From Candidatus Poribacteria bacterium (GTDB lineage Bacteria > Poribacteria > WGA-4E > WGA-3G): DNA of 49,092 nucleotides. The notes beneath the pieces were generated by a model. It had not been told where the DNA came from, made no database searches, and saw only the letters and a program-made list of their open reading frames with translations. Shown here one piece after another: positions 557 to 2,680 of the stretch (position 1 is the first letter of the stretch; every line of letters starts with the position of its first letter). The stretch covers positions 1-49,092 of the forward strand of contig JAJECK010000006.1 in NCBI GenBank assembly GCA_022822085.1. Direction: 5' to 3'. Made by a program: the position numbers and the translations under genes.

Positions 557-664
557 TATGATAAAACTAAAAAATTGACTATTCCTGCATGTCGTCCGAT
601 TAAACCCGTGTATATTAGGCAACTTGTGCAGATAATTGAGAACTTAGAGGAAGATGAATCATGA
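557..664 (+). pseudogene. HicA-like toxin remnant (C-terminal piece only)
   Basis: An open frame of about 35 codons reads YDKTKKLTIPACRPIKPVY..., resembling the end of HicA/YcfA toxins, where a beta strand ending in xTIPxH is followed by a basic KPxxxRxL helix. The catalytic His of HicA would lie upstream and is not visible. The open frame continues upstream only through the MITE-like element, with no HicA-like residues. The stop codon overlaps the start of the HicB gene (ATGA, 661-664), the usual coupling in hicAB operons. I infer a toxin truncated by element insertion. The family call rests on about 30 residues. Confidence 0.42.
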
Positions 665-1071
665 ATGAATTAAAATATCCATTTCTTATGAGTGTATTGC
701 CCACAGAAGAAGGAAAAGACTATTTAATCGGATTTCCTAATCTACCGAGATATCCATTTCTTATGAGTGTATTGCCCGCAGAGGAAGGTGGGGGTTACTT
801 AATCGAATTCCCCGATTTACCAGGGTGTATGTCTGATGGGGACACGATCGAAGAGACGATAGAGAATGGAAAAGACGCTATGTTTTGCTGGATAGAAGCA
901 GCGAAACAGTTCGGAGACGAAATCCCTCAACCCGGTTCTGCCGATGTATTCAATGGACAGTGGGCTCAACAGATTCCTGCGTACATCCACATCCAGCTTT
1001 TGCAACGGGCAAAGCAGAAAGGCGTAAGTCTAACTACTCTGGTTACCGAAATGTTATCAGCAGCACTATGA
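661..1071 (+). CDS. hicB: HicB-family antitoxin with internally duplicated N-terminus
   Basis: 136 residues. Residues 6-30 and 31-55 are two successive copies of the HicB N-terminal strand-strand motif (YPFLMSVLPxEEG..YLIxFPxLP). The second copy continues into the canonical HicB body (GCMSDGDTIEETIENGKDAM) that forms the degenerate RNase-H-like fold. The C-terminus (IPAYIHIQLLQRAKQKGVSL) resembles the ribbon-helix-helix DNA-binding tail that lets HicB autorepress. HicB normally neutralises a HicA mRNA interferase, but here the upstream partner is only a remnant. The gene may therefore be an orphan antitoxin acting as a decoy or regulator (inference). The duplication makes it about 25 residues longer than usual. 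Confidence 0.82.
   Translation: MNELKYPFLMSVLPTEEGKDYLIGFPNLPRYPFLMSVLPAEEGGGYLIEFPDLPGCMSDGDTIEETIENGKDAMFCWIEAAKQFGDEIPQPGSADVFNGQWAQQIPAYIHIQLLQRAKQKGVSLTTLVTEMLSAAL
676..825 (+). repeat. 75-bp tandem duplication inside hicB
   Basis: Bases 676-750 and 751-825 are in-frame direct copies. The first 27 bases are identical (TATCCATTTCTTATGAGTGT...), and later positions have diverged mostly at third codon positions. Each unit encodes 25 residues. Divergence is greater towards the 3' half, so the duplication is not brand new. Confidence 0.85.
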
Positions 1072-1146: not shown

Positions 1147-2064
1147 ATGTCTTATATACACCGTTTTAATGTTAACCACTATAGACCATGTGAAAACCTA
1201 AAGAATCTGTTTGAAGAATTAGTTATACAACCATATAACAATCATCCGCCGACTCAGGCATGGAAAGATGTAGTTAGCAGTAAAGACACGGATTACCACA
1301 GATACACAATTTTGGACCGTGTCAGAACAGATTTTGATGAACCATTTAATGGACTATCTCCAGAAGATAAGGTACTACTCTACTGTGTTCATTACATGCC
1401 TATGCACCTATATAGCAGCTATCATGTTTTTACAAAACATCTCCTTCCACACATAACAGAAAAAGTTGTGTTTATTGATATCGGCTGTGGTCCATTAACT
1501 TCAGGCATCGCATTTTGGGCTGCTGCAAGGCAATGCAACATCACTTGGATAGGTGTTGATAGATCACAAACAATGCTCCATAAAGCAGCGGAAATTAATA
1601 AATATGGACCTGACAACTACAATTATCGATTCTTTAGTAATGAACGATTAATTCGTGAATTCAGCAGATTGCCAGGATTATTAGACAACTATATCACACT
1701 AAATGATCAAACACAAATAATATTCAATTTTTGCTATGTTCTGGCAAGCAGGACACTAAACATTAACGCTTTATCAGATGTATTTTATCAGATAGTGAAT
1801 AAGTATAAGACACATAATATGGTTGTAGTCTACCAAAATCCAAAACCACCAAATAATATAACACCAGAAATGTCTTTTTTACATAAAAAATGGTTCACTT
1901 TGAAACAAAACTTTCAAATGTTCAATAGTCAAGTAACCGAGTCAAATATTGAAACGTTTCGTTACAATGGGTTAAATATGGATTTTGATGTCTACTATGA
2001 TATACTTTACAATATAAATATGACACAATGGAGCACGAAACATGGTACAACTATCACTATTTGA
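1147..2064 (+). CDS. Class I SAM-dependent methyltransferase, partner of AlkB-like gene
   Basis: 305 residues. A Rossmann motif I, FIDIGCGPLTSGIAF (about residues 109-123), follows an N-terminal region of about 105 residues, and GVDRSQTMLHKA about 30 residues later is the acidic motif II segment that binds the SAM ribose. No DPPY/NPPY motif is seen, so it is not an obvious adenine DNA methylase; the substrate is unknown. The last 23 bases overlap the next gene, an AlkB-family dioxygenase, which implies translational coupling. In eukaryotic ALKBH8 an AlkB domain and a methyltransferase share one polypeptide for tRNA wobble modification. That parallel is only an architectural hint. The gene looks intact, and its start lacks a strong Shine-Dalgarno. 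Confidence 0.75.
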   Translation: MSYIHRFNVNHYRPCENLKNLFEELVIQPYNNHPPTQAWKDVVSSKDTDYHRYTILDRVRTDFDEPFNGLSPEDKVLLYCVHYMPMHLYSSYHVFTKHLLPHITEKVVFIDIGCGPLTSGIAFWAAARQCNITWIGVDRSQTMLHKAAEINKYGPDNYNYRFFSNERLIREFSRLPGLLDNYITLNDQTQIIFNFCYVLASRTLNINALSDVFYQIVNKYKTHNMVVVYQNPKPPNNITPEMSFLHKKWFTLKQNFQMFNSQVTESNIETFRYNGLNMDFDVYYDILYNINMTQWSTKHGTTITI

Positions 2065-2680
2065 CCAAGATCAACAATCAACTCAACTACATACTACACC
2101 GGTAAAAGAGGAATCTATTGAGACGATACAAGGGTTAAAATATATAGAAAATTATATAGATAATCTCCAACATATTGATTTATTAGCAGAGATTGACAAA
2201 CATAAATGGCTTGATGATCTAAAACGGAGAGTTCAACATTACGGATATAAGTATGACTACAAAGCACGTAAAGTTAGTCGTGATATGCGAATCGATGATT
2301 TGCCTGAGTGGTTGGAAAAGTTAAGTGAAAAATTACACGAAGATGGACACATGCCGGAAGTAGCCGATCAGGTTATTATCAATGAATATATGCCCGGACA
2401 AGGTATCGCAGCTCACATAGATTGTGAACCGTGTTTTAAGGATACGATTGCCTCTTTGAGTTTAGGATCAGGTTGTGTTATGGATTTCACTAACAAAGAT
2501 GACAAGACAAAAAAAATTCCAGTCTGGTTAGCATCGAGAAGTCTTATCGTCTTGAAAGATGATGCCCGGTATAAATGGTTGCACGGAATTGCCCCGAGGA
2601 AAACGGATAAGCTGGATGGTGAAAGACCAGAACGGGGACGGCGTGTATCGTTAACGTTTAGAAAAGTGATTATAGAATGA
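2042..2680 (+). CDS. AlkB-family Fe(II)/2-oxoglutarate dioxygenase
   Basis: 212 residues, typical of AlkB-like proteins. Visible motifs: N114-x-Y116 (INEYMPGQG), iron ligands H125-x-D127 (AAHID) and H181 (KWLHGIAPR), and the 2-oxoglutarate-binding Arg pair R201/R207 (RVSLTFR). Such enzymes oxidatively remove alkyl groups from nucleic-acid bases or modify RNA or proteins. The first 25 residues, including QLSLFDQDQQS, resemble a flexible lead with a possible clamp-binding QLSLF motif (QxxLxF-type), which would favour a DNA-repair role. That is inference. It overlaps the methyltransferase by 23 bases and is probably co-translated. All catalytic residues are present. Confidence 0.88.
   Translation: MVQLSLFDQDQQSTQLHTTPVKEESIETIQGLKYIENYIDNLQHIDLLAEIDKHKWLDDLKRRVQHYGYKYDYKARKVSRDMRIDDLPEWLEKLSEKLHEDGHMPEVADQVIINEYMPGQGIAAHIDCEPCFKDTIASLSLGSGCVMDFTNKDDKTKKIPVWLASRSLIVLKDDARYKWLHGIAPRKTDKLDGERPERGRRVSLTFRKVIIE

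What the first reader, a model, noticed from the sequence alone, without database searches (positions are those of the whole stretch)
1147..2680. Overlapping methyltransferase-AlkB gene pair
A SAM methyltransferase with an N-terminal region of about 105 residues overlaps by 23 bases an AlkB-like dioxygenase with all Fe/2-OG residues. Methyl addition and oxidative removal or modification encoded together recall ALKBH8. The AlkB protein also carries an N-terminal QLSLF that could bind the sliding clamp. A coupled nucleic-acid modification or repair unit is possible.
Basis: partly seen in the sequence, partly recalled or inferred. Interest (0 to 1): 0.5.

Follow-up and report, generated by a model that had tools for sequence, protein, structure and literature searches.

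The report
Mobile methyltransferase paired with ALKBH8-like oxygenase
Two overlapping bacterial genes, an unclassified methyl-adding enzyme and an oxygen-adding enzyme closely related to human ALKBH8, occur together in distant bacterial groups and probably modify the same nucleic acid, which gives a direct way to look for the unknown target of bacterial ALKBH8 proteins.

Summary
In detail: a 305-aa class I methyltransferase (MT, 1147-2064) overlaps by 23 nt a 212-aa AlkB (2042-2680) with intact iron and RX5R residues, in a Poribacteria genome. The AlkB is ALKBH8-like; the substrate of bacterial ALKBH8s is recorded as unknown (PMC4051686). The MT is an orphan family (PADLOC C3a159); its nearest solved fold is METTL17/Rsm22; kinship to Trm9 was not shown. 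The pair is a real unit: outside one Poribacteria paralogue clade, 24 of 24 examined MTs have an ALKBH8-like AlkB just downstream, fused, or one gene away (12 of 12 relatives fetched by MT alone). At the thresholds used, 386 cyanobacteria hold both genes in the same 3 genomes and neither elsewhere; of 302 other genomes outside the phylum, one (the same) holds both. Two loci carry both in one reading frame. A clamp-binding-like QLxLF tail motif is conserved (27 of 32; 0 of 19 ALKBH8-like AlkBs elsewhere). Most likely both enzymes act on one nucleic acid; RNA or DNA is undecided. Relative RD repairs DNA in vitro and does not hydroxylate mcm5U tRNA. On Picosynechococcus plasmids the pair adjoins type III-B CRISPR or retron genes.

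The parts
1147..2064 (+). Orphan class I SAM methyltransferase, PADLOC C3a159 family (type I, the AlkB-paired branch)
   Evidence: ORF; PDLC01079 E 1.7e-23; weak generic methyltransferase Pfam hits under their cut-offs only; AlphaFold model mean pLDDT 71.7, pTM 0.78; fold nearest METTL17 Z 17.0; place in tree
1483..1500 (+). SAM-binding motif GCGPLT (residues 113-118)
   Evidence: G, C, G, P and T invariant in 14 diverse rows
2042..2680 (+). ALKBH8-like Fe(II)/2-oxoglutarate oxygenase (AlkB superfamily)
   Evidence: PF13532 4.3e-26; profile hits human ALKBH8 3thp E 3.6e-40, best E. coli AlkB entry 8.4e-08; model pLDDT 87.2; fold ALKBH6 Z 24.3 and ALKBH8 Z 23.2
2042..2064 (+). 23-nt overlap of the two reading frames
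2048..2062 (+). QLSLF, sliding-clamp-binding-like motif in the AlkB N-terminal tail
   Evidence: pattern in 27 of 32 AlkBs with an MT or MT remnant in the locus, 7 of 7 Poribacteria AlkBs without adjacent MT, 0 of 19 ALKBH8-like AlkBs elsewhere (11 of those 19 tails are 4 residues or shorter); shuffled tails mean 0.8, max 5 of 32; residues 1-4 and 6-20 have pLDDT under 50
2414..2422 (+). Fe ligands H125 and D127 of AlkB
2582..2584 (+). Fe ligand H181 of AlkB
2642..2662 (+). RX5R motif (R201, R207) of AlkB
661..1071 (+). Neighbour, not part of the module: HicB-like antitoxin, a variable cargo gene of the same site
   Evidence: PF15919 3.5e-13; cluster c19 in 11 loci

Best explanation
The two genes form a mobile two-enzyme nucleic-acid modification module, a split counterpart of eukaryotic ALKBH8. 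The MT uses SAM to methylate a nucleic acid and the ALKBH8-like oxygenase, probably made by coupled translation, oxidises the same site (hydroxylating the product or removing a misplaced methyl group). Shown: catalytic motifs, ALKBH8-group membership of the AlkB, strict pairing of this MT branch, inheritance as a unit, two single-frame loci, conserved QLxLF tail.
For: Pairing: 24 of 24 type I MTs of at least 255 aa in the loci examined have an ALKBH8-like AlkB downstream: 20 within 150 nt, one at 306 nt, two in one frame with it, one with a helicase gene between. Cyanobacteria: the same 3 of 386 genomes for both genes (Fisher p 1e-7). Outside the phylum: of 302 genomes the one true MT genome is the one ALKBH8-like AlkB genome (p 0.003). 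Home phylum, all MT types: both 27, AlkB only 14, MT only 12, neither 31 (p 0.0005). MT and AlkB distances correlate, r 0.90 over 18 loci, 0 of 2000 permutations. The AlkB is closest to human ALKBH8 by sequence, which in mammals is fused to a tRNA methyltransferase (PMC4051686, introduction read). The authors of PMC4051686 favour an unidentified RNA substrate for canonical bacterial ALKBH8s (discussion read).
Against: The substrate is untested. QLxLF points to DNA and the replication clamp. Bacterial ALKBH8 RD repairs m3C and etheno lesions in DNA in vitro but showed no mcm5U activity on tRNA, and loss of the A. tumefaciens protein left tRNA-Gly(UCC) unchanged (PMC4051686). 24 of 27 type II MTs have no full AlkB within 310 nt downstream (three of these have one about 700-750 nt away), and 12 genomes, all with type II MTs, have a long MT but no full-length AlkB match. 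ALKBH8-like AlkBs on other plasmids and viral contigs have no such MT in the fetched flanks. The distance correlation is also expected from plain co-inheritance. The single frames come from draft genomes and could be sequencing errors.
Confidence: 0.5

Rival explanations
1. Replication-coupled DNA dealkylation: the AlkB is tethered to the sliding clamp by QLxLF and repairs methyl or etheno adducts at forks; the MT is a DNA-acting or unrelated partner in the same operon.
For: QLxLF conserved in an otherwise variable, disordered tail in Poribacteria and three cyanobacterial genera. The Roseobacter pTB4 protein, 53.6% identical over 84% of the window AlkB, has the species and length (195 aa) of protein RD, which repairs m3C and etheno-C in vitro (PMC4051686, Table 1). 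A Latescibacterota pair lies near a polA gene.
Against: Gives the MT no role although this MT branch is always paired. The clamp contact is untested. RD itself lacks the motif. In vivo phage-DNA tests of RD were negative (PMC4051686, Table 1).
Confidence: 0.22
2. Defence accessory: the pair belongs to anti-phage islands, for example protecting or repairing host RNA when CARF-HEPN or retron effectors fire.
For: PADLOC lists the MT as C3a159. On Picosynechococcus plasmids the pair follows a kinase-WYL gene near type III-B cmr genes (pAQ6, with a CARF-HEPN gene, and the PCC 7003 plasmid) or a retron-type reverse transcriptase (pAQ5). G353 has an SF1 helicase between the genes. G673 has an Mrr-like gene and a weak HEC-01B match downstream. 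At G722 a gene two places from the pair matches PADLOC PDC-S03, E 5.1e-26.
Against: cmr or retron genes were seen only in Picosynechococcus; neighbours elsewhere were scanned only in part. In Poribacteria the flanks are a carbohydrate-binding-module gene, a DUF7700 gene and genes that I read by eye as moaA-, sufC- and sufB-like.
Confidence: 0.15
3. Toxin-antidote pair: the MT puts harmful base methylation on nucleic acid and the AlkB removes it.
For: Overlapping small bicistron, accessory spread, plasmid carriage, HicB-like gene nearby.
Against: 12 genomes of the phylum keep a long MT without a full-length ALKBH8-like AlkB match (one, G048, has a partial one), among them single-contig G023 and G043. 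All 12 MTs are type II, so type I is not directly excluded.
Confidence: 0.08

Closest known systems
Human ALKBH8 (RRM-AlkB-ZnF-Trm9-like MT; mcm5U to mchm5U in tRNA)
   Same: AlkB domain closest by profile (3thp E 3.6e-40) and 44% identical over 162 residues in the fold alignment; oxygenase linked to a methyltransferase
   Different: Separate genes, MT first; the MT is not shown to be Trm9-like; no RRM detected; N-terminal QLxLF tail
Bacterial ALKBH8-like AlkBs (R. etli, A. tumefaciens, Roseobacter RD; PMC4051686)
   Same: Same sequence group; RD-type protein 53.6% identical over 84% of the query
   Different: The 19 examined outside the paired set (17 viral contigs, Roseobacter, Streptomyces) have no match to the MT profile in the fetched flanks (up to 6 kb, often less) and no QLxLF tail
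Rsm22/METTL17 (mitochondrial small-subunit assembly, methyltransferase-like)
   Same: Best fold match: METTL17 Z 17.0 over 247 residues, Rsm22 Z 13.6 over 241, next entry 12.5 over 204
   Different: Lacks the APCPH..CP..WCHF cluster seen in the bacterial Rsm22 proteins read; the profile is closer to a generic methyltransferase alignment (97.6%) than to Rsm22 (84.6%)
PADLOC C3a159 (PDLC01079)
   Same: Window MT E 1.7e-23; two cyanobacterial MTs E 1.6e-22 and 9.7e-22; G353 MT 2.9e-09
   Different: No cas genes were noticed at the Poribacteria loci, which were not fully scanned; that 'C3a' means type III accessory is recalled, not read

Membership tests
ALKBH8-like AlkB group | Closest to ALKBH8 among ALKBHs by sequence | tested here: met
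   ALKBH8 140.7 bits, next NMAD-1 76.4, ALKBH6 71.8, E. coli AlkB 34.9 (by fold ALKBH6 and ALKBH8 are about level)
ALKBH8-like AlkB group | HxD...H iron triad and RX5R | tested here: met
ALKBH8-like AlkB group | Wobble-uridine hydroxylation or etheno/methyl dealkylation activity | not testable with these tools
   none
Eukaryotic ALKBH8 | Trm9-like methyltransferase partner | tested here: inconclusive
   no entry named Trm9 among the 9 at E <= 10 by profile nor among the 50 fold rows shown; a missing row does not exclude it
Eukaryotic ALKBH8 | RRM domain | tested here: not met
   no RRM among Pfam matches at E <= 1 in window AlkB or MT
Rsm22/METTL17 | Pfam Rsm22 (PF09243) | tested here: not met
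   not among the 11 families matched by the 15 MTs at E <= 10; 0 of 58 genomes of the phylum match at E <= 0.001
Rsm22/METTL17 | Metal-binding cysteine cluster after the core | tested here: not met
   only two columns hold cysteine in 10 or more of the 14 rows, one of them in the SAM motif
Rsm22/METTL17 | Fold including the N-terminal helices | tested here: met
   Z 17.0, rmsd 4.0, 247 aligned, model residues 10-305
Sliding-clamp client | QL(S/D)LF-type motif in a flexible region | tested here: met
Sliding-clamp client | Binding to DnaN | not tested
   no complex prediction was available
Type III CRISPR accessory | Regular association with type III loci | tested here: inconclusive
   cmr genes seen at Picosynechococcus pAQ6 and the PCC 7003 plasmid only; most other loci were not scanned for cas genes

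The most novel reading that the evidence does not exclude
Bacteria carry a split, horizontally moving ALKBH8: an orphan SAM methyltransferase and an ALKBH8-type oxygenase that install a two-step (methylate, then hydroxylate) modification not yet described in bacteria, on tRNA or on clamp-associated DNA. The pair would identify the missing substrate of bacterial ALKBH8 proteins and may serve to shield host nucleic acid during defence.
Probability: 0.2. Interest if true: 0.85.

Novelty: new variant of a known kind. Interest (0 to 1): 0.58.

Why it matters
The physiological substrate of bacterial ALKBH8 proteins is stated as unknown (PMC4051686, discussion). A dedicated methyltransferase partner, present in the cultured cyanobacterium PCC 7002 (which I recall to be genetically workable), makes that question directly testable: delete or express the pair and look for the nucleoside that changes. 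It would also show how a methyltransferase-oxygenase couple like human ALKBH8 can exist as separate, mobile genes.

Tried and rejected
Trm9-like MT: not found by profile or in the fold rows; left inconclusive. Rsm22 membership: suggested by the fold, hhalign 83.8% and profile hits to Rsm22 proteins L164 and L165; a control showed that generic methyltransferases score as well or better and the Pfam model does not match, so only a fold resemblance is claimed. Phage origin: no MT match at E 1e-3 and no AlkB match at E 1e-10 in 50,697 phage records and no MT relative in viral contigs, but 18 viral contigs do carry an ALKBH8-like AlkB. Independent second pairing in G353: its AlkB falls outside the paired clade in the tree, but the AU test does not reject one clade (p 0.28). 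Toxin-antidote: weighed and marked low. Literature: the searches showed no paper on this gene pair among the rows listed (lists are capped, for example 15 of 225; 'C3a159' gave 0 papers). Read: PMC4051686 abstract and sections 3, 17, 24; passages only of PMC11139829, PMC13254535 and PMC8171064; all others were seen in listings.

Results against the reading: 19 of 47 long MT matches have no AlkB match within 1 kb and 21 of 55 full AlkB matches have no MT match within 1 kb. Five of 32 paired AlkBs lack the strict QLxLF pattern and only 10 have canonical QL[SD]LF. L104, a viral contig in the cyanobacterial AlkB clade, has neither a clear MT (best trace E 0.88) nor the motif. RD is inactive on mcm5U tRNA (PMC4051686).

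Limits and dropped rows: multi-genome searches scored at most 6 or 7 first-look candidates a genome. The 302 genomes outside the phylum are 386 less the 84. One search took MT ORFs of at least 255 aa from listed loci, duplicates once; L034-L044, L046, L048, L051 and L197 were not in its list and shorter matches were not classified. The 24-of-24 count includes loci fetched because of AlkB (L082-L099); the 12-of-12 set (L004, L005, L006, L015, L033, L045, L047, L049, L050, L163, L195, L196) is my selection of loci fetched by MT queries. The 32 'paired' AlkBs include some not directly adjacent (L012, L021, L024, L029) and one with an MT remnant (L092); the fused L082 and L084, L163 and frame-broken L115 were left out. 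L031, L091 and L089b were left out of the AlkB tree.

Full report
Observation. The window holds a 305-aa methyltransferase (1147-2064) and a 212-aa AlkB (2042-2680) on the same strand, overlapping by 23 nt. The AlkB has the iron ligands H125, D127, H181 and RX5R. The window begins at the first base of its contig. Records with MT relatives are labelled Candidatus Poribacteria (14) and Candidatus Latescibacterota (2).

The AlkB. A profile of 16 relatives (A3) finds human ALKBH8 at E 3.6e-40 (140.7 bits), then NMAD-1 at 76.4 bits, ALKBH6 at 71.8 and E. coli AlkB at 34.9. Its model (pLDDT 87.2) matches ALKBH6 (Z 24.3, 182 aligned, rmsd 2.3) and ALKBH8 (Z 23.2, 162 aligned, rmsd 2.1) about equally, ALKBH8 with the highest identity, 44%. 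It is therefore of the bacterial ALKBH8-like group. PMC4051686 (abstract and three sections read) tested such proteins: the purified ones all repair some DNA lesions in vitro; two protozoan ones also hydroxylate wobble uridine; the bacterial RD does not; an A. tumefaciens mutant had unchanged tRNA-Gly(UCC); and the authors favour an unknown RNA substrate. The Roseobacter plasmid protein, 53.6% identical over 84% of the window AlkB, has the species and length of their protein RD.

The methyltransferase. No Pfam family passes its cut-off for the window protein. PADLOC family C3a159 matches at 1.7e-23. The model (pLDDT 71.7, pTM 0.78, 18 sequences) has five N-terminal helices before a Rossmann core; its best solved matches are METTL17 (Z 17.0, 247 aligned, rmsd 4.0) and yeast Rsm22 (Z 13.6, 241 aligned, rmsd 4.6), against 12.5 (204 aligned) for the next entry (the molecule names of chains 8csp_7 and 8d8j_0 are). 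Sequence profiles do not separate Rsm22 from generic methyltransferases, so this is a resemblance of fold only.

Pairing. Of 51 distinct MT ORFs of at least 255 aa, 27 form one clade (support 100/99), a Poribacteria paralogue that I call type II; 3 of these 27 have a full AlkB within 310 nt downstream, and three more have one about 700-750 nt away. The other 24 (type I, window included) all have one: 20 within 150 nt, one at 306 nt, two in a single reading frame (531 and 633 aa), and one (G353) with a helicase gene between. For loci fetched with MT queries alone the count is 12 of 12. Over raw matches in the phylum, 34 of 55 full-length AlkB matches and 28 of 47 long MT matches have the other gene within 1 kb on the same strand; much of the remainder is type II MTs and, judging by score, a second AlkB branch to which the window genome's other copy (contig 44) belongs. 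By genome in the phylum: both 27, AlkB only 14, MT only 12, neither 31 (Fisher p 0.0005).

Co-occurrence in distant groups. In 386 cyanobacteria, 25 genomes have an MT-profile match at E 0.001; three are strong (E 9e-67 or better, the next is 1.3e-6) and those followed among the weak ones are short generic methyltransferase matches. ALKBH8-like AlkBs of E 1e-30 or better occur in the same 3 genomes and in no other, adjacent each time; Fisher p 1e-7. In 302 genomes outside the home phylum, five had an MT-model match at E 0.001 or better: G353 is a true member, two are Rsm22 proteins, and two gave no match to MT profile A2 at E 1. G353 is also the only one of the 302 with an ALKBH8-like AlkB at E 1e-30, in the same locus. 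At most 6 or 7 candidates a genome were scored in these searches. Over 18 paired loci MT and AlkB distances correlate at r 0.90 (0 of 2000 permutations). The genes therefore seem to spread and persist as a unit.

The clamp-like motif. Q[LPIMV]x[LF][FL] stands in the N-terminal tail of 27 of 32 AlkBs with an MT or MT remnant in the locus and 7 of 7 Poribacteria AlkBs without adjacent MT, but in 0 of 19 ALKBH8-like AlkBs elsewhere, 11 of which have a tail of 4 residues or less; shuffled tails give 0.8 on average, at most 5 of 32. The tail is otherwise variable and disordered in the model. The motif marks the Poribacteria-cyanobacteria clade, not pairing as such; it fits a sliding-clamp ligand, untested. 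In the passages seen of two papers on the bacterial clamp, AlkB is mentioned only for the human ALKBH2 APIM motif.

Neighbourhoods. In Poribacteria the genes are cargo of a conserved site: variable cargo, then a carbohydrate-binding-module gene and a DUF7700 gene and genes that I read by eye as moaA-, sufC- and sufB-like. GC is 0.34 (MT) and 0.38 (AlkB), against 0.43-0.45 for the next four genes measured, 0.41 for a WD40-repeat gene, and 0.37 and 0.44 for the two small upstream ORFs. On Picosynechococcus plasmids the order is kinase-WYL gene, MT, AlkB, near type III-B cmr genes (pAQ6, with a CARF-HEPN protein, and the PCC 7003 plasmid) or a retron-type reverse transcriptase (pAQ5). G353 has MT, SF1 helicase, and a 729-aa protein ending in the AlkB. 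G673 has an Mrr-like gene downstream. G722 has a PDC-S03 match two genes away.

Reading. The most economical account is a two-enzyme modification module acting on one nucleic acid, a split analogue of ALKBH8. ALKBH8-group membership argues for RNA; the clamp-like tail and the in vitro activities of RD argue for DNA. Loss of AlkB beside type II MTs argues against that MT being a toxin held in check by this AlkB. Novelty: the AlkB group and the MT model were known; the pairing was not found in the rows shown by the paper searches.

Noticed in passing
window 661-1071 (and ORF 356-664): HicB-like antitoxin whose first about 30 residues are a near-tandem duplicate of the next stretch; the small upstream ORF recurs before it in other Poribacteria but was not identified.
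   Followed up: partly
L095:1179-2144, L096:5313-6278, L097:5780-6766: AlkB with a C-terminal extension of about 105 residues; in L097 the extension has no Pfam match at E 0.1.
   Followed up: partly
L050:2831-6905 (plasmid pAQ5): Retron-type reverse transcriptase, a 301-aa protein without a Pfam or PADLOC match and a P-loop kinase-WYL protein directly upstream of the MT-AlkB pair.
   Followed up: partly
L163:8395-10584: 729-aa protein with about 530 residues without a Pfam match fused to an ALKBH8-like AlkB, after an SF1 helicase similar to helicases of reverse-transcriptase defence systems.
   Followed up: partly
L104:4980-5576: ALKBH8-like AlkB on a viral contig that groups with cyanobacterial ones but has no clear MT and no QLxLF tail.
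   Followed up: partly
L086, L087, L089, L090: Second AlkB copies beside the pair or in tandem; MT copies split over frames in L087 and L090 beside an intact AlkB; in L089 (G003) no MT and one of two AlkBs interrupted.
   Followed up: no
L049:8584-9789 (plasmid pAQ6): 401-aa protein after the AlkB matches PADLOC C3a124 (E 1.4e-162), unknown function.
   Followed up: no
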